A stretch of 64,000 bases of DNA, taken from positions 682,001 through 746,000 of the forward strand of contig NZ_JAZHRT010000001.1 of assembly GCF_036924535.1 (NCBI RefSeq), given 5' to 3'. Numbering within the stretch: position 1 is the stretch's first letter; the number at the start of each line of letters is the position of its first letter. A program made the position numbers and the translations under genes. This document shows positions 43,769 to 64,000 of this stretch, one piece after another. The notes beneath the pieces are model-generated. The model worked only from the letters and a program-made list of their open reading frames with translations, ran no database searches and had not been told where the DNA came from. This stretch comes from Bradyrhizobium sp. AZCC 2262. GTDB taxonomy: Bacteria > Pseudomonadota > Alphaproteobacteria > Rhizobiales > Xanthobacteraceae.

Positions 43769-43810
43769 GATGCTACTCCCTTGATGCGTCGGGCCATCTC
43801 TAGCCTGCGA

Positions 43811-45931: not shown

Positions 45932-46034
45932 TCGAGCCAGCCTGATCTCGCCAGCCCGTCATAGCGGCTTCAGATGCTTCTCTGCATCGCAATTTCCAGC
46001 GGTTTTCCGATGGCATCTTCGCCGCGTTTTGTCT

Positions 46035-46805
46035 TCACAGGCCGATGACAAGACGGACCGCAGGAACAGATTCGCCAATACCAAAAACCAGATTCCTGCC
46101 GACCTTCTCGGGGTCAATGTAGGTGCCGAATAGGTGGTCCCAGATGGGGAAAAGTACAGCGAGATTATTGTTGTAGTGCTCTGGATTATCGCTGTGATGA
46201 ATATGGTGATACCGTGGAGTTACGATTATCCACTCCAGCCATCGATTGCCCCACCAGGTGTTGAGATGCATGAAGTCATTTTCGAAGGTATTTTTCAGTA
46301 AGATGGCCCAGAAAATCCACCACGGAGAAAATTCGAGAAGCGCTCCGGCTGCGATATAGGGCAAGTTGGCCAACGTCATTTGGACGACGGAACCGCGCAC
46401 GCCGGCCAGCCAGTACATGTAAGTTGGAGAGTGATGCCACTTGTGCGCCCGCCACAAATGGCGTGTGTGCAGCAGCCTATGCACCCAATAATGGCCTAGA
46501 TCAGCCAACACGAGATAGAGCGCGATACGGATCGTCAGCGGCCACTCCAGCACCCAGTGCGGCAGCGTTGGCGGATGCATAATCCAACGGTCAATGAATT
46601 CTGCGGTCGGCACCACGCCAAAAGCGAAAACTAGCATGGCGAGGATGTCTTTTGGCAGAACCTTCCGGTACGGCACAAAGTGCGCCGGGTCCCGTTTCTC
46701 CAGCGCTGTCAGCAAGACCAGTCGGAACCCAAACAGGATCAGACTGACCAATACGACCTTCTTTGGAATGAAAGAAAGGGTTGCACTTTGCAGAAATTCG
46801 AACAT
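46035..46805 (-). CDS. fatty acid hydroxylase / sterol desaturase family membrane protein
   Basis: 256 residues, membrane-bound di-iron type. The histidine boxes are HYWVHR (residues 105-110), HTRHLW, HKWHH (121-125) and RYHHIHHSDNPEHYN near the C-terminus, the eight or more histidines that hold the two irons. Such enzymes hydroxylate or desaturate lipids using O2. It lies at the edge of the NRPS/polysaccharide cluster, transcribed toward it in the same direction as the first flippase. A role in making a hydroxy-acyl group for the cluster is only an inference. Confidence 0.85.
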   Translation of the reverse strand: MFEFLQSATLSFIPKKVVLVSLILFGFRLVLLTALEKRDPAHFVPYRKVLPKDILAMLVFAFGVVPTAEFIDRWIMHPPTLPHWVLEWPLTIRIALYLVLADLGHYWVHRLLHTRHLWRAHKWHHSPTYMYWLAGVRGSVVQMTLANLPYIAAGALLEFSPWWIFWAILLKNTFENDFMHLNTWWGNRWLEWIIVTPRYHHIHHSDNPEHYNNNLAVLFPIWDHLFGTYIDPEKVGRNLVFGIGESVPAVRLVIGL

Positions 46806-46988
46806 CGGCGCCTCGAAAATTATCCAGCGGCATCAAAAAATTATCTAGCAAACATCAAAACCCTTCCTGGGCAGCGGGAAAGGAAAGGCTATCGTATCAT
46901 GCCGCAGGGAGAACGAAAGCAATAGCGTGGCATTGGTTTTTGCTTTCGAGGTCCAGACCAGGCCCGTGCAGTCCCGGCGAGCCATTAT

Positions 46989-47049
46989 CCAGTTCGGCGC
47001 CGGCCGAGGCGATGGACTATCTCGTCCCACGAACCATGGGCCGAACTGG
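46989..47049. repeat. inverted repeat between hydroxylase and flippase genes
   Basis: ccagttcggc (46989-46998) and gccgaactgg (47040-47049) are perfect 10-bp arms 41 bases apart. It lies in the 348-base gap between the two minus-strand genes, which holds nothing else that I can name. Confidence 0.5.
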
Positions 47050-47153
47050 CCGCGTAACCCTAACGGCTTTGCCGATCGAACGTGATTCACCCTGCGCCCG
47101 GCATAACATTGTCCGCGAGTTTAATCGCAGCCGAATGAGGGTCGAGGAGCAGG

Positions 47154-48605
47154 TCATGCCACACCAAGCGTCCTCCGCAACACCTTGACCGCGCGAACCA
47201 GCTCATGACGAAGCGGATGACGGATGAGCCATAGGCCGCAGCCCCACCCGACTGCCGAAAGAAACAGAGCGATCAACGCGCCTTTAATCGACAAATTGCC
47301 CGGCCCGCCCGCAACCAAAATCACGGCGATTGGGCCGAGGCCACTCAGGAATGAGAGGCCAGCACTCTTGCGGAGCGCCTTGATGAATTCGAACCAGCGG
47401 AACCCAAGGTGTCGGCGAACCAGTAGAACGGCCGCAAATGCGTTTAGCGGCACGGTTACAACCAGGCTCGATGCGACGGCGACCAGTCCGTATTGCGCCG
47501 CAAAGCCGACTGCCAAAGTGTTCAGTAGGGCCTGCGACGCAACCAGGCGAGGCAGGAACTTGACCGCGCCGACTGCCACGAGAACAGGGTACTGCAGGGC
47601 CCAGGGAAATGAGAAAGCCGCGGCAAGGCACAAGATCCGTACGAGCGGCGCCACATCAAGCCATTGTCGTCCAAGTAATCCGCTGACCAGAGGAGTAGCG
47701 AGCGCGCCCAACAGGATTAGGCACGGCCACTGCACGGCAGTGATGAATTCTATAGCGATCAGATAAACGCGTTTTGTGTCCGAGTTTTCACGCACGCTCC
47801 GGGCAAATGCGGGCAGAGCAACCGCGCCTATGCCAGCGAGTATTACGCGTTCAGGAAAAAGAGATAGCAGAACGGCACGCTGCGCGATCCCGACACTGGC
47901 AGGATCCAACACTTTTCCGAGAACCAGATAAGGCGCGTACTCACCTAAAGCGGCGATCAACGCCGTCGCGCTGTCGAAAGTGCCGAAGCCGATTACGCCG
48001 CGCCATTCGCTCAACGACAAGCGATAGATTGAATGGTCCGAGCGAAAGGCAAAGCAGAGGCAGCTTCCTACAATGGCAGATGCCACGCTTGCCCATGCAA
48101 GTGACATGTAGCCGAAATCCAGTGCCGCGAGCCCAATGCTTGTCAGTGCGCCAGCAAACGACATCGATACGGTTACCAGTGCGTGAGAGCCAAAGGCCAT
48201 CTCACGACTCATCAATGCGAAGATCGGGAAAATGAACGGCCCCAGGACATATCCGAGGGCGACGACCTGTATATAATGCTCTACTTCCGGGAGGCCGTAA
48301 AAACGTGCGAGGGTACCCGCGCCGAGGTAGAGTAGAAGCGCGATTATGATCGAGACAAGCAGGCTGGTTGTGATGCTTGTCCGTATTTTTTCAAGGCTCA
48401 GTTCGTTTTGCTGAATAAGATAGGCGCCCCCGCCAAGCTCACGTAAGGCTTCTGCAATCGCGTAGACCGAACTGCCCAGAACCGCGACGCCAAAAGCGGC
48501 CGGCGCAATCAGCCGCGCGATCGCGATAGTCACGAAGAGATTGATTACCATCACCACGTAGCGTCCGGCCGTGGCCCATACGAAGGCCCTCCTCACGCCG
48601 ACCAT
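47154..48605 (-). CDS. Wzx-type oligosaccharide flippase (polysaccharide biosynthesis protein)
   Basis: 483 residues with about fourteen membrane helices of the MOP flippase superfamily. The N-terminus has GRYVVMVINLFVTIAIARLI, then APAAFGVAVLGSSVY, the usual start of Wzx/colanic-type flippases. It would move a lipid-linked glycan or lipid product across the inner membrane. It is divergent from the NRPS gene with 334 bases between. A second flippase is at 60696-61985. Confidence 0.88.
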   Translation of the reverse strand: MVGVRRAFVWATAGRYVVMVINLFVTIAIARLIAPAAFGVAVLGSSVYAIAEALRELGGGAYLIQQNELSLEKIRTSITTSLLVSIIIALLLYLGAGTLARFYGLPEVEHYIQVVALGYVLGPFIFPIFALMSREMAFGSHALVTVSMSFAGALTSIGLAALDFGYMSLAWASVASAIVGSCLCFAFRSDHSIYRLSLSEWRGVIGFGTFDSATALIAALGEYAPYLVLGKVLDPASVGIAQRAVLLSLFPERVILAGIGAVALPAFARSVRENSDTKRVYLIAIEFITAVQWPCLILLGALATPLVSGLLGRQWLDVAPLVRILCLAAAFSFPWALQYPVLVAVGAVKFLPRLVASQALLNTLAVGFAAQYGLVAVASSLVVTVPLNAFAAVLLVRRHLGFRWFEFIKALRKSAGLSFLSGLGPIAVILVAGGPGNLSIKGALIALFLSAVGWGCGLWLIRHPLRHELVRAVKVLRRTLGVA

Positions 48606-48939
48606 TTAAAGCTCCCGAATAGCAAGTGCGTCCGGACGGGAACAACTAGCGTTGAGGGAAAGTTAACGCTTGTCCCCCTGTTGTCCGCGACCTACCGATG
48701 GTTAACAGAATCGCTCTTGCGGTGGCGGCAAATCGACACATCTGGGAGCTCTCGAAAGGCTATATACACAAGGTGTTCTCTGCACTGGCGAGCGCCCGGT
48801 TCCGTGCCAGAGTGCTCGAATCTATTAATAGGCGCATTAATGCGTTTTATTGATTTGAAGATTATGGTATCGCGGAATCAGGCCGCAACTGCAAGCTTTA
48901 GCGGCTAGAAATAGCAACGGAACGGGCAGGAAGTCGATC
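48606..48939. promoter_or_regulatory. divergent regulatory region between flippase and NRPS genes
   Basis: 334 bases that must contain the promoters of both genes. AT-rich blocks lie near 48835-48875 (aatgcgttttattgattt). I cannot define -35/-10 boxes with confidence, and no terminator hairpin is visible. Confidence 0.5.
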
Positions 48940-51900
48940 TTGCATTACAATTCCGAGCTTCGGCTTTTGAGCCAGGGCCAAATCAGCATTTGGCTCGCTC
49001 AGATGCTTGATCCGCATGACCCGGCGTTTAATATCGGCGAATGCATTGAAATTTGCGGGCCGATTGACGAAAAGTTTTTTGAGCAGGCTTTGCGACGAGC
49101 AGTGAAGGAAGCGGACGCCCTGCATCTCCGCGTGCTCGAAACCGACGACGGACCTCGACAGTATTACGGCGATGACGACGACTGGGTCATGCCGTTCCTT
49201 GATCTGAGTGCGGATGCCGATCCTCGCGCAGCGGCCGCGGCGTGGATGCGCGTGGATATGACCCGCGCATTTAATCTGGCTGAAGGACCTCTGTTTCGTT
49301 TCGCGCTTCTTCGGGTCAGCGCCGATTGCTACTTCTGGTATGCTGTCAACCATCACATCGTGAACGACGGTTTTGGGTGGCTGATAGTGCTTCGTCGGGT
49401 CGCCGAGCTCTACAGTGACCTGGCAGGCGGTCGTCTGGCAGATTCTGAAAGTGTCCCCTCGCACGAATATCTTCTCGAGGCGGAACGAAACTATCGTCAA
49501 TCCGAACATTTTTTTCGGGACCGAGACTACTGGTCGAACATTCTCAAGGACCGTCCGGAAGCCGTAACGCTATCAACGCGGGCCGTCGCTCCGAGTCCGA
49601 GTGTTGTTCAAATTTCGGGCTGGATTCCCCGCGCGATCGATTTGGAGTCATTCGGGCGTACCTACGGCTCAAGCGGCGCTGCCGTAATAATAGCGGGAGC
49701 AGCGCTGTACCTATGCCGGATGACGGGAGCCCGGGATCTCGTGTTGGGGATGCAAGTCGCCGCCAGAATTGGAGATCGTCCACGGCGCGCAGCCGGATTG
49801 GCAGCCAATATTGTTCCGCTACGATTGTCGATCGATCCGAACGAAAGCTTCGATAGTCTGTTGCGCCGGACAGCGCGCAAGTTGCGCGACGCTTTCCGTC
49901 ATCAACTTTATCGGACGGAAGACCTGCGGCGCGATTTCGGGTTGGCTCCAAATGATCCCGATATCTACTGTGCATTCGCAAACTACATACCGCTGGACGA
50001 GGGCATCAGGTTCTCCGAATTTGCTATTCGACGCTCGCCCTTGGGCAACTGGCGCGTAGAGGACATTCAATTTGTTTACTATGGGGGTAGCGCGTCTTGC
50101 GGCCATCGCATCGACATTGTCGCAAATGCCGCCAAATACACCCCGAATGAACTGGAGGAGCATCAACAGCGGTTTTCCGCCCTGCTGAGCCAATGCGTCG
50201 CAAGACCGGATACGATTTGCAGCCGTGCCGATATTATATCCACGGCAGAGCGAACGAAAATATTGGTGGAGTTCAATGCCGTCGGAAAAGACTATCCGAC
50301 GGACAAATTAATTCATCAACTGTTCGAGGAACAGGTCAAAGCGAATCCGGAAGCGATTGCCGTCCATTTCGACAAGGCGACGCTGACATATGCAGATTTG
50401 AACGTCCGTGCCAACAAGCTGGCTCGTTGCCTGAGGGCCAACGGCGTGGGGCCCGAGACGCTGGTTGCTGTTTGTCTTGAGATATCGGTCAATATGGTTG
50501 TGGCCCTGCTCGGCATCATGAAGGCGGGAGGAGCCTGCGTTCCAATCGATCTGGCGCTTCCGAAAGGTCGGGTTGCGTCGATACTGGGCGACGTTGACCC
50601 CTTGGTCATACTGACCGAGGATCGGGTGCGAGCGCGGCTTCCCGACACGCAGAGCAAGCTTATCGTGCTCGATCTCGAGGAAGACGCTATTGCGCGTTTT
50701 GCCGGGACGAATCTCGACGCCGAAGCGCCAGGGCTAACACCTCGTTGCCTGGCCTATGTCGATTATACGTCGAGTTTCACGGGCGTCCCAAAAGGCGCGA
50801 TGCATGAGCACCGCGGCATTGTGAGTCGACTGCAATGGATGCAGGATGAATACCGCTTAACGAGTGACGACTGCGTCCTGCAAAAAACTCCCTTGGGATT
50901 TGATGGGTCCGTGCGGGAGGTCCTTTGGCCCTTGATGGCAGGCGCGAGATTGGCCGTTGCTCGACCGCGGGAGCAACTCGACCCAGCCTACCTAAAGCGG
51001 CTAATTCTCGAAATCGGCGTCACCACGATCCACTTTTTTCCATCCATGCTTCCGGCATTCCTCGATTTCGAGGGTATCGAGGAATGCAAATCCTTGCGTC
51101 GAATTTTCTGTAGCGGCGAAGAGCTGTCGCCCGCGCTGGCGAGTCGATGCCTTGCGCGACTGCCAGGGACGCGGCTCTACAATCTATGTGGACCGACGGA
51201 AGTGGCGATCGACGTCACCCACTGGACCTGCCTTCCCGACGATTCGGCCGGGCGGGCGCCGATCGGACGACCAGTCGCCAACACCCAAATCTATATCCTC
51301 GATCCACTCATGCAGCCGGTGCCCGTCGGCGCCGTTGGCGAAATCCATATCGGGGGTGTCGGCCTCGCGCGTGGGTACCTGCGGCAACCGGAACTCACCG
51401 CGCAAAGGTTCATTCCCTCGCCGTTCAACCAGGATGATCCGGACGCGAAACTCCACAAGACCGGGGATCTCGGCCGATGGCGCTCTGACGGCGCAGTAGA
51501 ATATCTCGGTCGCAATGACCTTCAGGTCAAGATCCGGGGCGCTTGCATTGAATTGAATGAGATCGAGCTGAAGCTAACTCGCATTCCGGGGATACGAGAA
51601 GCGGCAGTAGTTGTATGCGAGGATCCTGAGTCCCGGCCGCAACTGGTAGCCTACTTTACTGAAGACGCCCCAAAGCTTGCTCCATCCGGCAACCAGGCCC
51701 CGGCAGATATCGAGGTCATTCGACGGGAATTGTCGCTCACCCTGTTCGATCAGATGGTCCCGGCGGTGTTCGTGCCCATCGCTGCCATGCCGCTCACGGC
51801 GGACGGGAAACCAGATCGACGGGCTCTGGTCGCCATGGGTCGGCCCGGAGGCGCGGGTGCCGCTGGGGTCGATACATCGCCGCAAGGCGCCACCGAACAG

Positions 51901-54900
51901 GCCTTGCACGCGATATGGCGCGAAGTCTTGAGAGCGGATCATTTCGGCAGATTTGATGACTTCTTTGATCTTGGCGGGCATTCGCTGCTTGCGACGCAGG
52001 TCGCCTCACGGATATCCCGTACTTTTGGCCTCGAGCTTCCGTTGCATGTGATCTTCGACGCGCGAACTCTGGAGAGCCTGGGCCGGCGGGTGGACGACGC
52101 TCTCAGCAAGAATCCGCCAATCGCCATTGCCCCGCTCATTGAAGACCGAATCTTGCAGAATCCGCGCCGGCGCGCCGACAGTGCTCCTGGCGGGAATAAA
52201 CGAACCGCGATTGCGCCGCTGACCGAGCCTGTTCCCGATGAACGTGAACCGGCACTTTCCTACTCGCAACAGCGAATGTGGCTTATCCAGTCGCTCGATC
52301 CGAACAACACTGCCTACAACCTGAGCGGCGCGATACGTCTCCTTGGCCCGCTCGATGTACGCGCATTCTCCGAAGCCCTCAACGAGTTGCGTCGACGACA
52401 TGAAAACCTGCGCAGCACGTTCTCCGAAGTGGATGGCGAGGTGAAGCAGCAGGTTAATGCTTGGCGATCTCAGGAACTGGTCGTTACCGATCTGCGATCA
52501 TTTGGTGACGGCGCATCGAAGGAGGCGCAGCAGAGAGCCAAAGCCGATGCGCGGACGCCGATTGACCTGGGACGCGGGCCGGTTCTGCGTGTATCGCTTC
52601 TCCGAATCGCGGCCGAGGAGCATCTTCTCCAGATAACCCTGCATCACATTTCAGGCGATCAATGGTCGGTAGGAATCTTCGGCCGCGAGTTGGCTGCTGC
52701 CTACAATGCGCTGCGTGCCGGACAACCCGTCAGCCTGGAACCAATCAGGATCCACTACCGGGACTATGCGTTATGGCAGCGCCGATATCTCAATGACAGC
52801 CGGACAGAGAACCAGCTGTCGTACTGGACCGAGAAGCTCAGGGAATTGCCATCGCTGGAGTTTCCAACGGATTTTCCCCGGCCACGGGTGCGGGGATTGA
52901 ATGGCGCCAGCCACCTGACATCGATCACGCCGTCCCTGCTGTCCAGGCTCGACCAATTGAGCCGCCGCGAGGGATGCACCCTTTTCATGACGATGCTGGC
53001 GGCTTTCGCTCTGCAACTGTATCGTTTGACGGGACAGGATGACTTTGCGATCGGCGCGCCGATCGCAAATCGTACCCAGAGCGATGTCGAGAACATGGTC
53101 GGCACCTTTGTGAACACGCTGGCACTGCGAATCGATTTGTCGGGAAAACCCGGCTTTCTCGATTTTCTGAAGCGCGTCCGTGCCACTGCCCTGGACGCGT
53201 ACGCGAACCAGGATGTTCCATTCGACAAGCTGGTTCAGGATATCAAGCAGGCGCGCGACAACAGCCGAGCGCCGCTTGCACAGGTCATGTTCAACATGTT
53301 GAACGCGCCATTTTATGGCGTCTCGTTCGATGATCTGAAATGGGAGCCGGTGGTTATTGACAGGGGCGGCGCGCAGTTCGAATTGAGTGTGTCGGTGGAC
53401 GCTCAGCTGTCCAATACGGTAACCTTCGAGTACAATACGGACCTGTTCGAGCGAGCAACCATTGAGCGCTTTGCGGCTCAATACCTTCAAATCCTGGAAA
53501 GCATAGCCGACGATCCAACGCTCACTATCGCAGCGGTGCCGATGTTACCGCTAGACGAGCGTCGATTGCTATTGAACGACTGGAATGCTACCCGGACGGA
53601 CGACATCGACCGGCCGTTGTTCGTAAGCATGTTCGAACAACAGGCGGCTCGGCATCCGGAAGCGCCAGCCATATCGTTTGAGGATCAGACGATCAGCTAT
53701 GCCGCCCTCAATGCTTCTGCCAACACAGTTGCGCGAAATCTTCGTGAAATGGGCGTACGACCCAACACCGGCGTTGCGATTTGCGTGAAGCGATCGATTG
53801 ATCTCGTCGCGATGCTGCTCGGGATCCAGAAGGCCGGCGCCTACTACGTCCCCCTTGACCCGTCTTTTCCGGCCAAGCGGCTTTCGTATATGCTGGAAGA
53901 CAGCAGCGTCTGCGCGCTGGTGACCGATGCGGATTCCAAGGACCTGTTGACGCCGCCGACCGGTCTTCATGTATTCGATTCCGCGGCTCTGGTGGCGGCC
54001 TCAAACGCGTCGAGCCAGGGCAATATCGATGGAGGAGCCTCTCCGTCGGACATTGCGTACATCATCTACACATCGGGATCGACCGGTCAGCCGAAGGGGG
54101 TCGCGGTCCAGCATCGCTCGCTTTCGAATTTCCTGCTGTCGATGTCGCGAAGTCCCGGGCTGAGTAGCCAGGACGTGCTGGCCGCGGTGACGACCATCTC
54201 GTTCGATATTGCGGGCCTGGAGCTCTATTTGCCGTTAAGCGTCGGTGCGCGCATCGAGCTGGTGTCCAAGGAAACAGCCTCTAACGCGGCTGCGCTCTCG
54301 CGTCTGCTCGACGGAAGTGGAGCGACAGTCCTTCAGGCGACTCCGGCGACCTGGCGGATGCTTATAGAGGGCGGCTGGAAGGGGAACACCAATCTCCGCG
54401 CCTTGTGCGGTGGTGAAGCGCTTTCTCGCGACCTCTCCGATGCAGTGCTCGCCCGCGTTGCTGAACTCTGGAACTTGTATGGGCCGACGGAGACCACGAT
54501 CTGGTCGGCTGCCGCGCGAATTGAGCCGGGCAAGGCCCCAATCTCGATCGGGCGGCCAATTGAAAATACGCGTATCTACGTTACCGATCATGAAGGCGAG
54601 TTGTCGCCGATCGGGATTCCCGGCGAAATCGTGATTGCAGGCGATGGCGTAGCGAGCGGCTATCACGGCCGGCCAGAGGCGACGGCGGATCGGTTCTTAC
54701 GCGACCGCTTTGCGCCAAACGGGGGCGGGCGCCTTTATAGGACTGGCGACCTCGGGAAATGGGGCGCCAACGGTCTACTTTATCATCTTGGCCGGATTGA
54801 CAGCCAAGTGAAGGTTCGCGGCTTTCGTATCGAAGTCGGAGAGATCGAGGCGATCCTGCGACAACACCCCTCTGTGGCCCAGGCTGTCGTTGTGGCGCGC

Positions 54901-55359: not shown

Positions 55360-55371
55360 GAAACTGACACG

Positions 55372-56136
55372 ATGGTGCCTTTTTTTTTCGGATCAAGACA
55401 GCGACGTCTTTTCGGCATCTACGAGCCTGCGGCCGGGCGCGGTGGGGGGGCGCGTGCGGCTTTGCTCTGCAATTCCTGGGGGAAGGAGTATTTCAACGGG
55501 CATAGGGCGATGCGCCTGCTCGCCAAACGGCTATGCGCAACCGGATTCGATACATTGAGGTTTGATTATTTCGGCGCAGGCGACTCCGGAGGTGAAGCGA
55601 GCGAGGCCGATCTCGATGGCTGGAGACACGACATCGTGTCAGCAGCGCGTGAACTCAAGCACATGAGCGCTGCGCCGCGCGTAGTTCTTGTCGGTCTGCG
55701 CCTGGGCGCCACGCTGGTAGCGGAGACGGCACCTCGTCTGCACGAGGATATTGACGGAGTTATTCTTTGGGATCCGATTGTACGTGGCTTGGACTACGTG
55801 GAAGAACTGGCAGAACAAGGCGGGCAAAAGGCCAGACTGTCCGAGTTCAAATCCGACATGGCAGACGATATGGAACTGGAAGGACTTTCTGTTTCACCGG
55901 CTTTCGTCTCCGGATTGAAAGCTATTGACCTCTGCTCCGAGAAGTTGGGGCTGCAAGCGCGCCGACTGACCATTTTCACCTGTAAGCCCCCTTCAGATTG
56001 CCAACTTCTGAACTCCGAAGGGCGCACCAGCGAAGTCCTGGTCTTGAAAACGGCGTCGCCATGGAAAGATGCTACTGAACGGACCGAAACCCTTCCCATC
56101 GAGGTGTACGAACGGATTGTCGAGTGGCTGCGATAA
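55372..56136 (+). CDS. alpha/beta-hydrolase fold protein with nucleophile position R110
   Basis: 254 residues, 12 bases after the NRPS stop. The fold is clear: NSWGKEYFNGHRAM, LRFDYFGAGDSGG, then the nucleophile elbow, which reads GLRLG (108-112). The usual Ser is therefore an Arg. The acid DPIV is present near residue 132, but no catalytic histidine stands in the last 30 residues. It resembles, from memory, the 'hydrolase 2' proteins of exosortase-A EPS loci, where GLRLG-type elbows also occur. I infer a non-classical or partner role. A nine-T tract lies just after the start codon (55380-55388). Confidence 0.75.
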   Translation: MVPFFFGSRQRRLFGIYEPAAGRGGGARAALLCNSWGKEYFNGHRAMRLLAKRLCATGFDTLRFDYFGAGDSGGEASEADLDGWRHDIVSAARELKHMSAAPRVVLVGLRLGATLVAETAPRLHEDIDGVILWDPIVRGLDYVEELAEQGGQKARLSEFKSDMADDMELEGLSVSPAFVSGLKAIDLCSEKLGLQARRLTIFTCKPPSDCQLLNSEGRTSEVLVLKTASPWKDATERTETLPIEVYERIVEWLR

Positions 56137-57059
56137 AAGATGATTTCACGGAGCGCGTAGTCCAGTTCGGTCCAGGCAAGTGCCTGGTCGGAATCACGGC
56201 TCAGCCCGCCGAAACGTCGGACGGGGATAAACCGGCGGTCGTCATCCTGAATACCGGGACGATTCACCGTGTCGGCCATCACCGCATGTATGTGTCAATG
56301 TCGCGGAAACTGGCACGAGCCGGCCACACCGTCCTGCGCTTTGATTTCTCCGGCCTTGGAGACAGCGCCCCCCATTCATCGGGACAGCCGTTGCTCCGAT
56401 CCAACCTTTCAGACATTCGTTCGGCGCTGGACTGGCTGGAGACGACGCTGAAGGTTTCGAGGGTCATTTTGATCGGTCTATGCTCCGGCGCAGATCATGC
56501 CATTCTGTACGGACATTCGGATCCACGCGTAGCCGGTCTTGTTTTGATCGATCCGTACATTCCGACGACCGCCCGCTACTTCATCGATTACATCTCTCGG
56601 CGCATGGACCTCAAGAGCTGGAGACAGTTCAATTTCCGCAAGAGCAAACTCATGCGGCTTTTGTTGGAGCGCTTGTCGCGCGGTCTCTACAGAGAAACCG
56701 GACCGCAGCACCTGACTTTTCAAGGGCTCGATGCACGAGCATCTCTCGAGCAGGTCTATCACGCCACTGCGCAGGCGCGGGTGCAGCTTCTGGTGATTTG
56801 CACTGGCCTGCATCATGCGCCTCGACAAACCTACCGCGAACAATTCATCAATGCGTTCGACGCGGTTTCTTTCGATGACACCTTACGGCTTGAATTTTTC
56901 GAAGATGCCGATCACACGTTCAGTTCCGCAAGATGCAGAGATGAGCTGAATGATCTCGTCGTGGGATGGGGCCATGCCACGAAGTTCAATCGTGCCACCT
57001 CGGCGAGTTCATCGCCCAATCCCACGGTCAGCGATACCATTAACGCCTGGATTGCCTGA
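56124..57059 (+). CDS. alpha/beta-hydrolase fold protein with Cys nucleophile C120
   Basis: 311 residues from GTG 56124, overlapping the previous gene by 13 bases. The elbow is GLCSG (118-122), a Cys in place of Ser, with acid DPY near 143 and histidine in DADHTFSS near residue 275, so a Cys-Asp-His triad is possible. The N-terminal part NTGTIHRVGHHRMYVSMSRK and LRFDFSGLGDSAPH match, from memory, the 'hydrolase 1' proteins of exosortase-A EPS clusters (TIGR03100-like). Cys-type thioesterases release peptides or acyl groups; here it could unload the NRPS in trans. Confidence 0.78.
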   Translation: MAAIKDDFTERVVQFGPGKCLVGITAQPAETSDGDKPAVVILNTGTIHRVGHHRMYVSMSRKLARAGHTVLRFDFSGLGDSAPHSSGQPLLRSNLSDIRSALDWLETTLKVSRVILIGLCSGADHAILYGHSDPRVAGLVLIDPYIPTTARYFIDYISRRMDLKSWRQFNFRKSKLMRLLLERLSRGLYRETGPQHLTFQGLDARASLEQVYHATAQARVQLLVICTGLHHAPRQTYREQFINAFDAVSFDDTLRLEFFEDADHTFSSARCRDELNDLVVGWGHATKFNRATSASSSPNPTVSDTINAWIA

Positions 57060-57691: not shown

Positions 57692-58519
57692 ATGCAAACT
57701 CCCGTCGACTTCTCGGTCGTGATGCCTACCTTCCGCCGGCCAGCGGAACTGCGCATCGCGATTTCGAGCGTGCTTGCCCAGGCCGGGGTGGAGGTCGAAG
57801 TCATCGTGGCAGACGACAGTCCCGAACGCTCGGCTGAAGCGGTCGTCAGCAGTTTTCAAGACCCGCGCGTTACGTATATGGCAGGTCAGCCCTCCGGAGG
57901 CTTTCCGAGCAAGGTTCGTAACCTTGCCTGGCCCCATGCAAGGGGCAATTTCGTCCACTTTCTAGACGACGACGACATCGTACCACAGGGCCACTATGCG
58001 GCCGTCAAGGCGGTGTTTATCAAACAGCCGGATATTGGGGTGGTGTTCTGCCGTATCGCGCCATTCGGCAATTGCTCAAAGGAGCAGTTGCAGCACGAAA
58101 CCGAATACTTTGCCAAGGCCGCTCGGCTTGCCTCCTTTTGCCAGCGGCTTGGCTCAAGAAAGGCGTTTGTGGCGTGTCTGATGTTTCGGTGGGCTATCAT
58201 GGTCTGCGGCGCAGGAATGCTTCGCCGTGACTGCTTGGTGCACCTCGGAGGCTTCGATCCGGAACTTCGTCTCCGGGAGGATGTCGATTTTTATTCGCGC
58301 GCGATGCGTCGCTTTGGCGTTTATTTTCTCGATCAAGTCGGACTACAATATCGCATTGGTAGTCCCTCTCTTATGCACGCGCCTGTTCTTACTGAACTGG
58401 ACCTTCGGCAACTCCAGGAAGCGCAATCTCGCACCAACGCAAGATATAAGCGAGAGTGGGGTGCTTTTGAATTTTATGCCCTCAAATTATTTGCTCGAAC
58501 CCTCCTGAAAATCGTATGA
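57692..58519 (+). CDS. GT2 family glycosyltransferase
   Basis: 275 residues. The GT-A nucleotide-sugar site opens VDFSVVMPTFRRPAELRIAISSVL, with VIVADDSPER and the metal motif FLDDDDIVP near residue 90. The acceptor half contains CGAGMLRRDCLVHLGGFDPELRLREDVDF, with the acid ED as catalytic base. It would transfer one sugar from a nucleotide donor to a lipid or peptide acceptor on the cytoplasmic face. The stop overlaps the next gene (ATGA). Confidence 0.88.
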   Translation: MQTPVDFSVVMPTFRRPAELRIAISSVLAQAGVEVEVIVADDSPERSAEAVVSSFQDPRVTYMAGQPSGGFPSKVRNLAWPHARGNFVHFLDDDDIVPQGHYAAVKAVFIKQPDIGVVFCRIAPFGNCSKEQLQHETEYFAKAARLASFCQRLGSRKAFVACLMFRWAIMVCGAGMLRRDCLVHLGGFDPELRLREDVDFYSRAMRRFGVYFLDQVGLQYRIGSPSLMHAPVLTELDLRQLQEAQSRTNARYKREWGAFEFYALKLFARTLLKIV

Positions 58520-59637
58520 CATTGATCGTTGAAAGATTGTCGCACGCCGACGCGTTCGAAAAGTTGGTGCCCGAATGGGAAGCGCTCGACGCCCGGCTTA
58601 CCCCGCGTACGCCCTTCACCTCGCCAACCTGGAATCAGATTTGGTGGAAATATTTGGCTCGCCGGGAGGGCCTGCGGAACGACGAATTTTTCGTTCATGC
58701 GGTGCGCGATAGCGGCCGGCTCGTTGCTGTCGCGCCATTAATGAGGACGCATCAACCTGCGTTCGGTCCACTGCGGTTGTGCAAGCTGCAGTTCTTTGGG
58801 ACCGATCCCAGTCTTACCGAGATTCGTGGCGTGATTTGCGAGGTTGAGCGCCAAGGCGAGGTGGTCGCTGCTCTGATCGACTATTTCGCGGCCAGCAACG
58901 GTGATTGGGAGCTATTCAAATGGAGCGGGATTCGTCTCGATGGAGGAGGGCATAAGAAACTTGCGAGCCTGGGTTATACCAGAACAGAACGCATATTGCC
59001 CGACTACGTTAAGTCGCTTCCGGGCAGTTGGGAGGAACTCCACGCGAAGCTTTCCAACAACACAAGGAAAAGCCTGCGGAAGGGTTACGAATTCATCGAT
59101 CGGGATGGGCATAAGATTTCGCTTCGGGTGACGGACCGCGATACCGAGCTGGGCGATGCGATCGAACGGTTTTTTATACTTCATGCCGCGCGATCGCGGG
59201 CTTCCGAGATGACGTCGCACCGTGACAACTTTACGGAAGAAAAACATCGCGATTTCCTCCGCGAAGTAGCCCGCAGCTTGGCAGCGCGGGGCGTGCTCCG
59301 CGTCTTTCAACTGGAGATTGACGGCGAAATAGCCGCGACCCGCATTGCGTTCGCGCTGGGCGGAGAGTTATACCTTTATTTCTCGGGTTATGATCCCAAA
59401 TGGCGGAAGTATGGTGTAATGACCACGCTTATGGTCGAAACGATTAAATGGGCAATCGAACATGGATTTGCTTTCATAAATCTATCGACCGGAAAGGATC
59501 TTTCGAAATTGCGGTGGAAGCCGACTGAGATCTCTTTTCAGGACATTGTGCAGTCGTCGCCTTCGATCCGAGGAAGGCTTGCCCTCCGCGCCGATCTTTG
59601 GATACGTCGGCGCCGCCGCGATGCGATCCCTGAGTGA
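58516..59637 (+). CDS. FemAB/GNAT-like acyl- or aminoacyltransferase
   Basis: 373 residues. It matches the GNAT-related 'Acetyltransf_6/FemAB-like' group: the N-terminus FTSPTWNQIWWKYLA, central SNNTRKSLRKGYEFIDRDG, then ARSRASEMTSHRDNFTEEKHRDF and LRVFQLEIDGEIAATRIAFAL, the last being the acyl-donor beta hairpin. Relatives (BcsL/CelD, FemAB-like) attach acyl or amino-acyl groups to sugars or peptides and occur in EPS and PEP-CTERM loci. It overlaps the glycosyltransferase gene by four bases. Confidence 0.8.
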   Translation: MTLIVERLSHADAFEKLVPEWEALDARLTPRTPFTSPTWNQIWWKYLARREGLRNDEFFVHAVRDSGRLVAVAPLMRTHQPAFGPLRLCKLQFFGTDPSLTEIRGVICEVERQGEVVAALIDYFAASNGDWELFKWSGIRLDGGGHKKLASLGYTRTERILPDYVKSLPGSWEELHAKLSNNTRKSLRKGYEFIDRDGHKISLRVTDRDTELGDAIERFFILHAARSRASEMTSHRDNFTEEKHRDFLREVARSLAARGVLRVFQLEIDGEIAATRIAFALGGELYLYFSGYDPKWRKYGVMTTLMVETIKWAIEHGFAFINLSTGKDLSKLRWKPTEISFQDIVQSSPSIRGRLALRADLWIRRRRRDAIPE

Positions 59638-59818
59638 TTATGCAGCTTGATCAGCTAACGTCGTTCTGTCCGAGCCCGCCTGCGCAATCCCCGGCAGATT
59701 GCAAACGTTACCATTCCTGTAACGGTGCGGGCATCCAAATCAGCCAACAAATCGAAGGTGGCTATGCGCGACCCTCCGCCAATGTGGAGCGCGCAATTTC
59801 AACGGTTGAAAATCGATT

Positions 59819-60625
59819 GTGAACACGAATCCTCGCGACGAATGGCGGCCCGGTCTTTTTGGCCGACTGATCTTGCTGACACGGACAACTTTGTGGCGGC
59901 TACGCCTGTTCTTCAATTTGCGCCATCTGCGATTCCGCGGTGCATTCGCTACCTATGAAGAAGCTGCTGCCGCCGTTCGCCGGGGCGTTGCGGTCGGTTA
60001 CGACAACGACGCTATTCTCCTCCGCGATTTCGATCTCATGTGTCAGGTTAAGCCTGAGGACTACGCGATTTTATACTGGTTGAGACGTTTGGCGCCACAG
60101 ACGCAGGTCCTTTTGGACGCGGGCGGCCATATGGGAACAAAATATCGCGCATTCGGCAATTATTTGGACTTGGACAGCGGGATCGAATGGGTGGTTTATG
60201 ACCTTCCCAGCATGGTTCGAGCCGGGCGCAAGATGGCGGAAGACGAAGGCCTGAGCAGGCTCCGCTTTGTCGACGACCTCTCGGAAGCGCCTGACGCGGA
60301 CGTCTTGCTCGCTTCCGGATTGCTGCAATACCTCGACATTCCGTTTGACGATTTGCTGCGGCGGCTTCCGGCCTTGCCGCGACACTTGTTGCTGAACAAG
60401 GTCCAGACGCGAGAGGGGCCTTCGGTGGTAACGTTGGAGAATTTCACTTACGCTGAGGTGCCCTATCAAATGCGTAATCGAGCTGAGTTCCTCGCCATGC
60501 TGGATGCACTGGGCTACGACATCGTGGACCAATGGACGATCCCTTCGCTCTCTCAGGTCATTCGGACCGACCTGTATTTGGGATCATCAACCAGCCGCGG
60601 ATACTACGCAAAGCTGCGCACGTAG
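59819..60625 (+). CDS. methyltransferase of the TIGR04325 type
   Basis: 268 residues from GTG 59819. The S-adenosylmethionine-like core is LLDAGGHMGTKYRAFGNYL (with glycine loop G-G-H), followed by WVVYDLPSMVRAGRKMAED and the ASGLLQYLDIPFDDLL segment, a pattern I associate with the TIGR04325 family. Its acceptor is unknown; it may O- or N-methylate the glycan or peptide of the cluster. A frame of 62 residues (59634-59822) that would bridge the gap before it looks like chance. Confidence 0.75.
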   Translation: MNTNPRDEWRPGLFGRLILLTRTTLWRLRLFFNLRHLRFRGAFATYEEAAAAVRRGVAVGYDNDAILLRDFDLMCQVKPEDYAILYWLRRLAPQTQVLLDAGGHMGTKYRAFGNYLDLDSGIEWVVYDLPSMVRAGRKMAEDEGLSRLRFVDDLSEAPDADVLLASGLLQYLDIPFDDLLRRLPALPRHLLLNKVQTREGPSVVTLENFTYAEVPYQMRNRAEFLAMLDALGYDIVDQWTIPSLSQVIRTDLYLGSSTSRGYYAKLRT

Positions 60626-60695
60626 CAGAGGTTGGTCCGCTGCGCGCAGGAGCGCGGATAAGTAGTGAGATCAGCGCGCTGGGAAGTGATCGAAA

Positions 60696-61985
60696 ATGCT
60701 AAATGTTATAAATTTCCTGCGGTCGAAGTTGCCTATGTTGCGGCGATTCGCTGGGTCGGCCGGTAGCTTGGCGATTGGAATCGTAGCCCAGGCGATAGCC
60801 TTTATCCTGCTTGCCCGCTATCTTGGGACCGTGCAATTCGGTCATCTGGTGACCGTCACGGCGGTGACAGCGCTTGCCAACTCGTGGTGCGGATTTGGTC
60901 CCGGCGAGCTGCTGCGGCGAGTCGTCAGCCGCGATCGATCAATGTACCCGCAAGCGATCGGCCACACCGTTCTGATGATTCTCATAACCGGTATTGTGCT
61001 GTCGGTACTGGTAGTGGCAGGCATGATGCTGTTTGTGCCGGACGGGAGCGATCCTCTCGAATATCTCCTGATCTTGTCGCTTCTTGTGCCGACCAACGTG
61101 ATTTTTCCCTCCTATATCAACATGGTCGAGAACGTTTTTTTGGCGCGTGGAGATTTCAAGCGAGCCAACATTGTCAATGGTGGTTCTGGCTTGGTGCGTG
61201 CGCTGGCCGCGGTCGTGGCGTGTGGCTTTTTCGGGTTAAGCTCGTTACTCAGCTGGGCGTTGGTTTGGGCAGCGGTCCACGTTGTCATGTGTTTATTGTG
61301 TGTCGCCGCAATTTGGCGTTTCGGCAGGCCCCGCTGGCGCATCCTTCAAAATGAAATTTGGCTGGGCGGGAATCTTGCTCTGTCGAGCTTTTTCATCGGG
61401 CTTCGTCATAATGTGGACGTCTTGGTGCTAAGTGCGGTGACGTCGCCCGAATTTGTTGGCATATATGGGGCCGGTCGGCGCGTGATAGGCGCGGCGCTGG
61501 TGGTACCAGGGTCTTTTGATCGCGTGATATACGGCAATCTTGCAGTTGCCGGGAAAGATGGTGCCGCAGCCAGTCTGAAGCTGGCCAGAAGGTACCTCAT
61601 CTACTCAGTTGCGATCAGTGGAGCAACAAGCGTAGCTCTCTTTCTGGTGGCCCCGTTTGCGCCGCTGATCTTCGGCGGCGCCTTCGGCGCAGCCAGCGAT
61701 GTCATCAGGATTCTTGCCTGGACGGTAATAACGACCGCTATCCAGTTTCTTGCCTTCGACGCGCTCAATGCGTCAGAACATCATAAGGTATCGACCATCG
61801 TAGGTAGTATTGCAAATGCCGCCGGGGCAGCCATGGTTGTTGTCTTCGGTAGTGTTTATGGCACTTTCGGCATATTCGTCGCCTTGTATTTATCCGATAT
61901 CACCCGCGGCGGAGCACTTTGGTTCGCCCTGCATTGGCTGGCCCGCCGGCAACACGGCGAGACGGCTCAGGGAACCGAAGCTTAG
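60696..61985 (+). CDS. Wzx-type flippase, second copy in the cluster
   Basis: 429 residues with about twelve to fourteen membrane helices of the MOP superfamily; the N-terminus is FAGSAGSLAIGIVAQAIAFILLARYLGTVQFG. It is unrelated in close sequence to the flippase at 47154-48605 but belongs to the same broad family. It would export a lipid-linked oligosaccharide or lipopeptide. Confidence 0.88.
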   Translation: MLNVINFLRSKLPMLRRFAGSAGSLAIGIVAQAIAFILLARYLGTVQFGHLVTVTAVTALANSWCGFGPGELLRRVVSRDRSMYPQAIGHTVLMILITGIVLSVLVVAGMMLFVPDGSDPLEYLLILSLLVPTNVIFPSYINMVENVFLARGDFKRANIVNGGSGLVRALAAVVACGFFGLSSLLSWALVWAAVHVVMCLLCVAAIWRFGRPRWRILQNEIWLGGNLALSSFFIGLRHNVDVLVLSAVTSPEFVGIYGAGRRVIGAALVVPGSFDRVIYGNLAVAGKDGAAASLKLARRYLIYSVAISGATSVALFLVAPFAPLIFGGAFGAASDVIRILAWTVITTAIQFLAFDALNASEHHKVSTIVGSIANAAGAAMVVVFGSVYGTFGIFVALYLSDITRGGALWFALHWLARRQHGETAQGTEA

Positions 61986-62155
61986 GCTGATTATCGTCCG
62001 CTATTTCCAAGCACCACTATGCAAACAGAGAACTCTTCGCCGGCGAGCAAGGTCGGAGTATAAGCGCTGTTCAGAGGGTTCTCGCAGCCGCAGCGTGGCT
62101 CCAAGCCATACGCCCAGGCGGCGGTCAAATCAGCTTCTTGATGGATGATTTTTTG

Positions 62156-62182
62156 GCCGGCGAGGTGCGTTGCATCGCCGGC
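62156..62182. terminator. candidate bidirectional hairpin between flippase and Wzc-like genes
   Basis: gccggcga (62156-62163) and tcgccggc (62175-62182) are perfect 8-bp arms. The following bases on the plus strand are tgattctta, only weakly T-rich, so termination is not certain. It lies in the 242-base gap between the convergent genes. Confidence 0.3.
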
Positions 62183-62227
62183 TGATTCTTATCGTATGTA
62201 TCGATCGCTCAGTTGAGGCACGCGCCA

Positions 62228-64000
62228 TCACGCCTGCGTATAGCCGTACTGGGCATAGTGCTCATTGTTATAATAACCGCGATTCTCAATATCGTATTTG
62301 TCGATCTGATTCATATCGACCTTGTTGAGTATCACGCCCAGCACGTTTTCGGAAACCCCCGGCGCTCTGCTGAGCGCGTGTTCGACGACGTCAATTTTCG
62401 TGTTGCCCCATTCGACGACAAATAAATATGAATCGATCAGGTGCGTTGTGGCCCGCGTATCTACAACAGGTGCAAGGGGAGGCAAGTCCACTACGACGTA
62501 GTTATACTCACTGCGCAATTTTTCCAGAAATACTCTTGTCACCTGCGAAGCCATGATCTCATTGCTCTGAACAAACATGGTTTTAATGACCGTCGGCAGG
62601 AATGTCAGGTTTTTCGTTTCGTCGGTCCAGACCGCGTCCGCAAGTCGCATTTTTCCTGAAATGACATCAAGGAAACCGTCGCCCGCATTCGGCGCGAGCA
62701 TTCGGGTGATCGTAGGATTGCGTAGATCAAAATCGAGCAGCATGACTTTGGCACCGGCCCGCGCCATGGTCAGCGCAAGCGACGCCGCGATTGTGGATTT
62801 TCCTTCTTTGGGAAGCGAAGACGTCAATCCGATTACCTGAGCGCCTTTGACGTTGCTATTGAGATCGATTGCAAGCTTTACCGACCGCATCGCTTCGGCA
62901 TGGCTCGAGAGAGGTGAATCGGTACCAGCCCAGGCCGGACCTTCGGTCCGTACTATCTGTCTTGTGCCATCCGGAGAACGACTCGTATCGGAATTCACCA
63001 CCTCGTCGCCTTTCCAGAGGGGGACGACTGTGATGCAATTCATCTGCAGACGCTTTTCGACTTGTCCGACGGTACGAAATACGCGGTCGGTAAGCTCACG
63101 CAGCACCGAAAATCCAAATCCCAGCGATATTCCGCCGCCAAATATCGCAGCCAGAACTTTGAGCTTCGACTTGTATTCCTTATCCAGGGGTCGACTAGCC
63201 CGTGAAATGACTCTCGCTTCCGTCACGGGAAAGGACTTTTGCTCGACCGACTCCATGTACCGCTTGTTCAGGTTGTCATACAGATCCTTCAGGGCCGCCG
63301 CCGAGCCCTCAAGCTCGCGCAACGTTACCTGCGCGCGATTCGACGTCTCTGACTGCGAGATGGATTGAGCCACCTGGGTTTCAAGATTTTTTTCCTTCCG
63401 CAGCGCGAGCTCGTAGTCGCTCTTGGAGGATTCTCCGAGCCGGCGAAGTTCGTCGAGCATGGCCGAGCGAACCTGCGCGATCTGGTTGCGCAAGTTGACC
63501 ACGGCTTGATTGTTCTGGCCGAACTTCGCAGACCAGTCGCTCTCTCTGCTGAGGAGCTCCAGCAGTTGTGACCGCTGCTTTCCAATCGTTTCGTTGATCA
63601 GGACGTCGGTAACCATCACGTTGGCGTTTCCGGAAGCTGTAGCGGATTGGACGATAGCGCTTACGCGATCGAGCCGGGCCTTCGCTTCGGAGGTCTGCCC
63701 ACGCGCCGTCCCCAACTGGCTATTGATCTCGCTGAGCTGCTGATCGCTCATGAGCCGCCCGCCAGTATCGACGATATTGTTCTTCGCCTTGAATTCGACC
63801 ACTGCGCGTTGCGCGGCCAGTGTCTGCTCGCGGATTTCCTTCACACGGCCTTCCAGCCAGCCGCTGGCTTGTCGGGTGGTCTGGTATTTTGCGTCCAATT
63901 GATCGGCAATGTAGGCATCGGCAAAAGCATTGGCGAATTGGGCCGCGCGTTCTCCATCTGAGGCCTCGTAGCTGATTTCAATGATCCATGCGGCGCCGAG
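62228..64000 (-). CDS. Wzc-type polysaccharide co-polymerase / BY-tyrosine kinase (5' partial)
   Basis: 591 residues are visible; the frame is open to base 64000, so the N-terminus lies beyond the window. A Wzz-like periplasmic part with long coiled coil (about 1-260) precedes a transmembrane segment (KLKVLAAIFGGGISLGFGFS). The kinase follows: Walker A LTSSLPKEGKSTIAASLAL, Walker A' MLLDFDLRNP and Walker B YNYVVVDLPPLAP. The C-terminal tyrosine cluster is ENRGYYNNEHYAQYGYTQA. Such proteins set chain length in Wzx/Wzy-type polysaccharide assembly. Its presence beside two flippases supports an EPS or capsule locus. Confidence 0.92.
   Translation of the reverse strand, partial: LGAAWIIEISYEASDGERAAQFANAFADAYIADQLDAKYQTTRQASGWLEGRVKEIREQTLAAQRAVVEFKAKNNIVDTGGRLMSDQQLSEINSQLGTARGQTSEAKARLDRVSAIVQSATASGNANVMVTDVLINETIGKQRSQLLELLSRESDWSAKFGQNNQAVVNLRNQIAQVRSAMLDELRRLGESSKSDYELALRKEKNLETQVAQSISQSETSNRAQVTLRELEGSAAALKDLYDNLNKRYMESVEQKSFPVTEARVISRASRPLDKEYKSKLKVLAAIFGGGISLGFGFSVLRELTDRVFRTVGQVEKRLQMNCITVVPLWKGDEVVNSDTSRSPDGTRQIVRTEGPAWAGTDSPLSSHAEAMRSVKLAIDLNSNVKGAQVIGLTSSLPKEGKSTIAASLALTMARAGAKVMLLDFDLRNPTITRMLAPNAGDGFLDVISGKMRLADAVWTDETKNLTFLPTVIKTMFVQSNEIMASQVTRVFLEKLRSEYNYVVVDLPPLAPVVDTRATTHLIDSYLFVVEWGNTKIDVVEHALSRAPGVSENVLGVILNKVDMNQIDKYDIENRGYYNNEHYAQYGYTQA

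What the first reader, a model, noticed from the sequence alone, without database searches (positions are those of the whole stretch)
46035..64000. Candidate undescribed surface peptide/glycan system: NRPS embedded in a Wzx/Wzc export cluster
Seen: fatty-acid hydroxylase, flippase, two-module NRPS, two non-classical hydrolases, GT2, FemAB/GNAT-like transferase, methyltransferase, second flippase, Wzc-type kinase. Known: Wzx/Wzc proteins assemble polysaccharides, FemAB-like enzymes attach acyl or amino-acyl groups, and NRPS modules make peptides. Inference: a short (acyl-)X-Gly peptide or aminoacyl unit is made on the NRPS and joined to a lipid-linked glycan, then exported, coupling peptide synthesis to exopolysaccharide. 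I know of no described system with exactly this set, but I cannot search.
Basis: partly seen in the sequence, partly recalled or inferred. Interest (0 to 1): 0.85.

Follow-up and report, generated by a model that had tools for sequence, protein, structure and literature searches.

The report
Glycine-ending peptide synthetase in sugar-coat cluster
A soil bacterium carries, inside its gene cluster for a secreted sugar coat, a peptide-making enzyme that ends on glycine and lacks the usual release domain; two conserved partner proteins, found beside similar enzymes in many bacterial phyla, probably take the product off and pass it on, possibly to the coat.

Summary
The NRPS (starter-type C-A-T-C-A-T, no thioesterase) is followed by two coupled alpha/beta-hydrolase-fold genes, and these prove the most telling part. 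hyd1 has an invariant Cys nucleophile and His (39/39 each); hyd2 has an invariant Arg where the nucleophile should be (39/39). The order carrier domain-hyd2-hyd1 recurs across phyla: 62 of 76 hyd2-hyd1 pairs from one genome scan have a T or A domain directly upstream. The adjacent A domain carries the glycine code in 31 of 46 loci, against 2 of 29 control A domains. Related pairs sit beside two other carrier-loading systems: amino acid:[carrier protein] ligases and the exosortase-A ligase TIGR03098.
The sugar-coat link also holds: five of 195 sampled genomes of the genus (inferred: Bradyrhizobium) share NRPS, hyd pair, flippase Wzx1, the GNAT gene and much of an EPS supercluster. Farther relatives often lack polysaccharide genes.
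Best reading: hyd2-hyd1 is a trans-acting Cys-type acyl-transfer/release pair for glycine-ended thioesters, here on an N-acyl-X-Gly chain. Transfer to glycan is plausible but unshown. A1 is eroded in several strains, so X is uncertain. No structure was obtained.

The parts
47154..48605 (-). Wzx1, MOP-family flippase (PF13440), divergent from the NRPS
   Evidence: 63-69% identical relatives beside the NRPS in four other genomes of the genus and 47-51% in L098, L099, L101
48940..55359 (+). Two-module NRPS, C-A-T-C-A-T, 2139 aa, ends with the second T domain (no TE)
   Evidence: 40 residues after the T2 serine
48964..50265 (+). C1, starter-type condensation domain, HHIVNDG intact
   Evidence: coordinates; closest PDB 7c1k/7c1h, 4jn3
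50386..51609 (+). A1, code DGRHFSLID (serine-like); core motif A3 altered (TSSFTG)
   Evidence: coordinates
51898..52089 (+). T1 carrier domain, LGGHS intact
52246..53571 (+). C2, condensation domain, HHISGDQ
53695..54891 (+). A2, glycine code DILQLGLIW, core motif A3 and A10 Lys present
   Evidence: coordinates
55153..55347 (+). T2 carrier domain (approximate limits), LGGHS intact, last domain of the NRPS
55372..56136 (+). hyd2, alpha/beta-hydrolase-fold partner with Arg110 (codon 55699-55701) at the nucleophile position
   Evidence: 12 bases after the NRPS stop, overlaps hyd1 by 13 bases
56124..57059 (+). hyd1, alpha/beta-hydrolase-fold protein with Cys120 (codon 56481-56483) and His264 (codon 56913-56915)
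57692..58519 (+). GT2 glycosyltransferase, overlaps the next gene by 4 bases
   Evidence: 70-71% relatives beside the GNAT gene in the four other genomes
58516..59637 (+). PF13480 GNAT/FemAB-like acyl or aminoacyl transferase
59819..60625 (+). TIGR04325 methyltransferase
   Evidence: 188.6 bits, cut-off 80; beside Wzx2 in three of four relatives
60696..61985 (+). Wzx2, second MOP-family flippase
   Evidence: seen in three of four relatives within the stretch fetched
62228..64000 (-). Wzc-type polysaccharide co-polymerase/tyrosine kinase, runs off the window (747 aa in all)
   Evidence: seen in G460 and G304
46035..46805 (-). OlsE-like fatty acid hydroxylase (below the OlsE cut-off); neighbour, not found with the NRPS in relatives
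   Evidence: no hit in tblastn of the relatives

Best explanation
The NRPS builds an N-acylated dipeptide-like chain ending in glycine and leaves it as a thioester on its last carrier domain. Having no thioesterase, it relies on hyd2-hyd1: hyd1 takes the glycyl-ended acyl group onto its invariant Cys (keeping it as a thioester) and passes it to an acceptor; hyd2, an Arg-containing pseudo-enzyme, docks the carrier or acceptor. The acceptor may be another carrier, an amine or hydroxyl of the coat polysaccharide or a lipid, or in the simplest case water (rival 1 is that narrow case, so the odds overlap). The product then leaves with, or as part of, the Wzx/Wzc surface material. Shown by sequence: domain order, missing TE, gene coupling, invariant Cys/His/Arg, glycine code, conservation across phyla, co-inheritance with the EPS set. 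Inferred: the reaction, the acyl cap, the docking role. Unknown: the acceptor and residue X. Confidence is for 'trans-acting acyl transfer or release pair for a glycine-ended thioester'; for a glycan acceptor I would say about 0.25.
For: No TE in the NRPS. In the scan of genome contigs (449 pattern stretches, 310 relatives, best 80 kept), hyd2 lies just upstream of hyd1 in 76 of 80 loci, and a T or A domain lies directly upstream of hyd2 in 62 of those 76; in 60 the T hit ends 15-301 bases before the hyd2 hit, which leaves no room for a TE. The last A domain has the strict glycine code in 31 of 46 resolved loci (22 of 37 without nine Corallococcus) against 2 of 29 control A domains, Fisher p 1.7e-7. 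hyd1 C120 and H264 and hyd2 R110, W133, P135 are each invariant in 39 of 39. hyd2-hyd1 are fused in one ~600-aa protein in other Hyphomicrobiales, where all 48 genomes with a strong match also hold an amino acid:[carrier protein] ligase and 36 of 53 copies lie within 20 kb of it, against 0 of 40 weaker hydrolase matches. Seven of seven ligases tested near XrtA-type hyd1 genes pass the TIGR03098 cut-off. Precedents for carrier-to-carrier aminoacyl transfer by a stand-alone enzyme: CmaE, LgnA (PMC8748450, passages), CysB (PMC7966384, passages). C1 closest to 7c1k and 4jn3.
Against: The canonical acid of the triad is not conserved in the 39-row hyd1 set. A1 core motifs are altered in the window and badly eroded in G460, G304 and B. 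rifense, so the first residue may be loaded in trans or the line may be decaying. 14 of 76 loci with hyd2 show no T or A directly upstream, and four of these (L138, L145, L158, L175) show no NRPS hit at all. Two loci with hyd2 and hyd1 in the earlier set (L086, L088) showed no ligase or A-domain hit. Some neighbouring ORFs carry an ordinary Thioesterase domain (5 of 120). 15 of 46 last A domains miss the strict glycine code (7 of these read DI[LVI]QIGG[IV]Y). A domains elsewhere in the same loci also often fit the glycine code (30 of 69).
Confidence: 0.6

Rival explanations
1. Ordinary lipodipeptide line: hyd1 simply hydrolyses the chain, and the free N-acyl-X-Gly amphiphile is exported (perhaps by Wzx1) as a surfactant or signal. 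The EPS genes are neighbours because both products serve the cell surface or biofilm. (This is the narrow, water-acceptor case of the best explanation; the odds overlap.)
For: Starter-type C domain; many hyd2-hyd1 NRPS loci show no polysaccharide gene nearby (50 of 80 show none of nine gene types); PPTases and Thioesterase-domain ORFs are among the commonest neighbours, as in secondary-metabolite clusters; G327 has the pair without EPS genes on its contig.
Against: A Cys nucleophile without a conserved acid, plus a pseudo-enzyme partner, is unusual for a plain hydrolase; Wzx1 and GNAT relatives co-occur exactly with hyd2 in the genus.
Confidence: 0.27
2. hyd2-hyd1 is a housekeeping editing pair (type II thioesterase-like) that frees stalled carrier domains, with no part in the product.
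For: Such enzymes share the fold and lie next to NRPS genes; LgnA both edits and transfers (PMC8748450, passages).
Against: The NRPS has no other release domain, hyd2-hyd1 directly follows the last T domain in most loci of the scan, and the partner A domain is strongly biased to glycine, which general editing does not explain.
Confidence: 0.08
3. The NRPS line in this strain is decaying and makes nothing; conservation reflects shared ancestry of a mobile cluster.
For: A1 motif changes; the first A domain of the second line is cut down to its C-terminal ~195 residues; cluster is patchy (5 of 195 genomes).
Against: C1, T1, C2, A2 and T2 keep the motifs looked at in all six sequences of the genus compared, and hyd1 keeps Cys and His; the hyd genes are only 53-58% (hyd2) and 66-68% (hyd1) identical to the other four genomes', so these residues have been kept over long divergence.
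Confidence: 0.12

Closest known systems
NCBIfam TIGR03100/TIGR03101, exosortase A system-associated hydrolases 1 and 2
   Same: Best named families for both proteins; in the related loci tested the hyd1 gene lies near an adenylating ligase TIGR03098 (7 of 7 tested); same Cys position in hyd1
   Different: Below both cut-offs; no exosortase in this genome; partner is an NRPS; separate tree branch
Amino acid:[carrier protein] ligase operons (NF005479/PRK07080; Mocibob et al. 2010, seen only as cited in passages of PMC4849084 and PMC6789786; no settled role that I recall)
   Same: Amino acid loaded on a carrier protein, hyd2 and hyd1 nearby, flippase or WbaP/Wzc sometimes nearby
   Different: Loader is a seryl-tRNA-synthetase-like enzyme plus a free carrier; hyd2-hyd1 are fused; an acyl-CoA dehydrogenase, a DUF1839-type protein (name recalled) and a ~830-aa protein accompany them; no such ligase in this genome
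CmaE / SyrC / CysB aminoacyl shuttles and LgnA
   Same: Stand-alone enzymes that move aminoacyl groups between carrier domains (PMC8748450, PMC7966384, passages read; fold and Cys of CmaE/SyrC recalled)
   Different: Work without a pseudo-enzyme partner as far as the passages say; not tied there to glycine or to TE-less terminal modules; sequence relation not tested
Wzx/Wzy-dependent exopolysaccharide clusters
   Same: WbaP, GTs, two Wzx, Wzc, Wza, UGD, polysaccharide lyases
   Different: Carries two PKS/NRPS lines and a PPTase; no Wzy recognised by family (ORF L007:2907-4220 is a candidate only)
DltA-DltC D-alanylation of teichoic acids (recalled)
   Same: Carrier-bound amino acid destined for a surface polymer would be the same logic
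   Different: No DltB/DltD-type acyltransferase was recognised among the genes scanned; acceptor unproven

Membership tests
Type I modular NRPS | C, A and T domains in order with intact core motifs | tested here: met
   A1 core A3/A8 altered, the other motifs looked at intact
Type I modular NRPS | C-terminal release domain (TE, R or terminal C) | tested here: not met
   protein ends 40 residues after the T2 serine
Exosortase-A (XrtA) associated hydrolases TIGR03100/TIGR03101 | score over the curated cut-off | tested here: not met
   121.3 of 168.45 and 104.9 of 202.75 bits
Exosortase-A (XrtA) system | exosortase gene in the genome | tested here: not met
   PF09721: no match at E<=0.001 in the one genome searched
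Amino acid:[carrier protein] ligase system | NF005479 ligase in the genome | tested here: not met
   G000 without match at E<=0.001
CmaE/SyrC-type aminoacyltransferases | carrier-to-carrier aminoacyl transfer through an active-site nucleophile | not testable with these tools
   needs an assay; Cys120 and His264 invariant in 39 of 39
Wzx/Wzy-dependent EPS cluster | initiating transferase, Wzx, co-polymerase Wzc, outer-membrane Wza | tested here: met
   PF02397, PF13440/PF01943, TIGR01007 over and TIGR01005 under its cut-off for the part of Wzc in the window, Wza-like protein with best families of the polysaccharide export type, below their cut-offs
Wzx/Wzy-dependent EPS cluster | Wzy polymerase | tested here: inconclusive
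   ORF L007:2907-4220 has 8 hydrophobic stretches but no family
Starter (lipo-initiation) C domain | closest to known starter C domains | tested here: inconclusive
   best PDB hits 7c1k/7c1h then 4jn3; their identity as starter domains is recalled

The most novel reading that the evidence does not exclude
hyd2-hyd1 is a general transferase that takes glycine-ended acyl groups from carrier proteins and fixes them on surface glycans or lipids: a Gram-negative counterpart of D-alanylation. It would be fed by three interchangeable loaders (NRPS modules, seryl-tRNA-synthetase-like ligases, exosortase-associated AMP ligases) and would explain the unassigned role of two long-known orphan gene sets.
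Probability: 0.2. Interest if true: 0.9.

Novelty: new variant of a known kind. Interest (0 to 1): 0.68.

Why it matters
If the pair is the release or transfer step of TE-less, glycine-ended assembly lines, it adds a widespread way of ending nonribosomal synthesis. It also gives a common, testable reaction for two unexplained gene sets: the amino acid:[carrier protein] ligase operons and the hydrolase pair of exosortase-A loci. In Bradyrhizobium it would tie peptide synthesis to the exopolysaccharide, a cell-surface layer that matters in plant symbiosis.

Tried and rejected
Rejected: (1) that the hydrolases are exosortase-associated here (below cut-offs, no exosortase). (2) That the fatty-acid hydroxylase is part of the system (not found beside the NRPS in relatives). 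(3) That NRPS-hyd2-hyd1 always lies in polysaccharide clusters (30 of 80 loci show one of nine gene types; seeds for that search came partly from these same loci). (4) A fixed 'Ser-Gly' product: A1 codes are serine-like in the window, G253 and G337, but motifs are eroded in other strains.

Led nowhere: AlphaFold of hyd1 (polled at 62, 67, 71, 74, 82, 86, 88, 90, 93, 95, 97, 99, 102, 103, 105, not finished), so no fold comparison. Ten paper searches (two of them gave no papers) listed no paper that, from title and abstract start, describes this pair or this cluster. I opened passages of five papers only (PMC4849084, PMC8707904, PMC6789786, PMC8748450, PMC7966384), so this is weak evidence of absence. 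Two regions fetched were not analysed; the two glycine-coded control A domains showed no hyd1 or hyd2 hit in their ~4.2-kb loci.

Limits of counts: the strong/weak cut (E about 5e-10) was set after seeing the list, and only 40 of the weaker matches were typed in as controls., 47 used 120 of the 135 flanking ORFs listed. One search dropped five loci (L116, L135, L154, L159, L170) from the 44 rows tried. Control A domains are the top-scoring one per genome, without the window genome's own. The scan alignment and the tree rows were chosen by me. Related sequences are not independent.
Full report
What is there. The window is bases 682001-746000 of a 9.48-Mb single-contig genome. The genus is Bradyrhizobium by inference: a 'same genus' genome (G337) gives a contig of the same length and content as the one the named collection lists as B. 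centrolobii. All genes of the finding exist at the stated coordinates with the expected families. GC falls from about 62% to 55-59% from 42 kb on, and the cluster continues past the window: a transmembrane ORF, GTs, Wza-like protein, polysaccharide lyase, metallophosphatase, PPTase, cupin, GTs, a UDP-sugar dehydrogenase-like gene (named from its sequence, no family scan), a hexapeptide acyltransferase, a PKS-NRPS line with its own TE, long repetitive proteins and WbaP.

The NRPS. It reads C-A-T-C-A-T and ends with T2. C1 is closest to PDB 7c1k/7c1h and then 4jn3, which I recall as starter (lipo-initiation) C domains, so an N-acyl cap is likely. The specificity residues are DGRHFSLID for A1 and DILQLGLIW for A2; the second is the glycine code, the first is serine-like (both meanings recalled). 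A1 core motif A3 is altered here (TSSFTG) and badly eroded in G460, G304 and B. rifense, but intact in G253, G337 and L099, while C1, T1, C2, A2 and T2 keep the motifs looked at in all seven sequences. So X is uncertain and may be loaded in trans; an inactive A domain bypassed by a shuttle has a precedent in cystobactamid synthesis (PMC7966384, passages).

The two 'hydrolases'. hyd2 starts 12 bases after the NRPS stop and overlaps hyd1 by 13, so the three are probably co-translated. In a 33-row alignment of mixed types hyd1 keeps Cys120 and Asp263-His264 in 33 of 33, and hyd2 never has Ser or Cys at the nucleophile place in 33. In a 39-row set of mostly NRPS-type loci, hyd1 keeps Cys120 and His264 in 39 of 39, while Asp263 falls to 31 of 39 and no acid is conserved at the usual place; hyd2 keeps Arg110, Trp133 and Pro135 in 39 of 39. 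The Arg thus looks selected, not a sign of decay. In other Hyphomicrobiales the two are one fused ~600-aa protein, which argues that they act together.

A conserved partnership with glycine-loading lines. A scan of the genome-contig collection (84,980 species by its description) with a hyd1 alignment gave 449 pattern stretches, 310 relatives and the best 80 loci, from Proteobacteria, Gemmatimonadota, Myxococcota, Planctomycetota, Chloroflexi, Acidobacteria, KSB1 and others by their record titles. hyd2 lies just upstream of hyd1 in 76 of 80; in three of the four exceptions hyd1 begins within 200 bases of a contig end, in the fourth (L139) it does not. A T or A domain lies directly upstream of hyd2 in 62 of the 76, and in 60 the T hit ends 15-301 bases before the hyd2 hit. 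The last A domain could be read in 46 loci: 31 fit DILQxG[LMV][IV]W, seven read DI[LVI]QIGG[IV]Y and eight differ. Without nine Corallococcus loci, all of which fit, this is 22 of 37. Of 29 control A domains (one per genome, best score to TIGR01733), 2 fit (Fisher p 1.7e-7). The A domains elsewhere in the same loci also often fit (30 of 69), so the bias belongs to these lines and is stronger at their end.

Two other loaders. In 297 Hyphomicrobiales genomes, 53 strong non-NRPS hyd2 matches lie in 48 genomes; all 48 hold an NF005479 amino acid--[acyl-carrier-protein] ligase (63 of 297 genomes have it over the cut-off), and 36 of the 53 lie within 20 kb of it, against 0 of 40 weaker hydrolase matches. 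Fifteen genomes have the ligase without a strong fused hyd2; one of them, G253, has the NRPS-type pair, far from its ligase. Of 17 such loci looked at in detail (L045-L061), 10 show the complete five-gene ligase operon beside the fused protein and two more, at contig edges, one gene of it. In XrtA-type loci, 7 of 7 ligases tested pass the TIGR03098 cut-off, while L086 and L088 showed no ligase hit. A hyd1 tree of 49 rows separates XrtA-type (100/99), fused/ligase-type (100/99) and NRPS-type (98/85, with two rows of unassigned context); rows were chosen by me. All three settings share an adenylating enzyme, a carrier (seen here for two; recalled for XrtA loci) and hyd1, usually with hyd2. That is the ground for reading the pair as a carrier-thioester handler.

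The link to the sugar coat. In 195 genomes of the genus, hyd2 relatives of at least 54% identity, Wzx1 relatives of at least 63% and GNAT relatives of at least 54% occur in the same five genomes (G000, G253, G304, G337, G460); the next best are 40%, 38% and 44%. In the other four, about 15 to 20 further genes of the set (WbaP, Wza, GTs, UGD, lyase and so on) lie next to Wzx1-NRPS-hyd2-hyd1 within the stretch fetched, in an order different from the window's; Wzc was seen in two, Wzx2 and the PKS-NRPS line in three, and PPTase and cupin not in G304. A sixth genome, G327, has a more distant NRPS-hyd2-hyd1 with none of the EPS genes on its 18-kb contig. Farther out, all six nearest loci (L096-L101) have a flippase, four of them outside Bradyrhizobium by title. 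Two Rhodocyclaceae loci (L140, L167) carry GNAT, flippase, GT2, deacetylase and GT4 genes behind hyd1, though a PPTase-like gene lies between their NRPS and hyd2. Overall 30 of 80 loci have one of nine polysaccharide gene types against 2 of 20 arbitrary loci, and the nearest two ORFs downstream of hyd1 include PPTases (7), LuxR (6), DegT (5), flippases (5), Thioesterase-domain ORFs (5) and GT4 (4) among 120. So the sugar link is real in this lineage and some others, not general.

How it most likely works. An acyl chain is taken up by C1, residue X and glycine are added, and the glycine-ended thioester is removed by hyd1 through Cys120 with the help of hyd2. A Cys thioester intermediate keeps the energy needed for transfer to an amine, hydroxyl or thiol; enzymes that shuttle aminoacyl groups between carriers are known (CmaE, LgnA: PMC8748450; CysB: PMC7966384; passages read). 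Glycine at the end is sterically easy and cannot racemise, which may explain the bias. GT2, the FemAB-like GNAT, TIGR04325 and the flippases would decorate or export the carrier glycan. Shown: anatomy, conservation, statistics above. Inferred: chemistry and direction. Open: acceptor, X, acyl group.

Novelty. Each part belongs to a known family. The recurring unit 'TE-less glycine-ended assembly line + Arg pseudo-hydrolase + Cys hydrolase', and its kinship with the carrier-ligase and XrtA sets, I did not find described in the ten paper searches made, whose listings I read; I opened passages of five papers only. I rate it a new variant of a known kind.

Noticed in passing
L008:8511-17284 and L011:12256-16224 (about 26-38 kb past the window end): Second assembly line KS-AT-T-AMT-C-A-T then C-C-T-TE (iturin-like order, recalled); its first A domain is reduced to the C-terminal ~195 residues in this genome, while G460 has a 647-aa frame there.
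   Followed up: partly
window 50386-51609 and relatives L077, L078, L097: A1 of the NRPS loses its core motifs in several strains of the genus while the motifs looked at in the other domains stay intact.
   Followed up: partly
L046-L048, L050, L051, L053, L055, L059-L061, L080: Amino acid:[carrier protein] ligase operons beside a fused hyd2-hyd1 protein; in each of these 11 loci a ~830-aa protein without an NCBIfam match (one member scanned; 'GH' in my scripts is a guess) accompanies them.
   Followed up: partly
L010:1978-8095: Caspase-domain (PF00656) protein, HlyD and C39-peptidase ABC transporter next to very large repetitive, adhesin-like proteins downstream of the cluster.
   Followed up: no
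L111 and L113 (Hydrogenophaga MAGs): Two hyd2-hyd1 NRPS loci stand tail to tail within 20 kb, on opposite strands.
   Followed up: no
window 42800-46000: Stretch with few convincing genes at the GC step from ~62% to ~58-59%, a likely edge of the acquired cluster.
   Followed up: no
L007:6529-7377 and L007:17526-18578: Two PF14099 polysaccharide lyase genes in the same EPS cluster.
   Followed up: no
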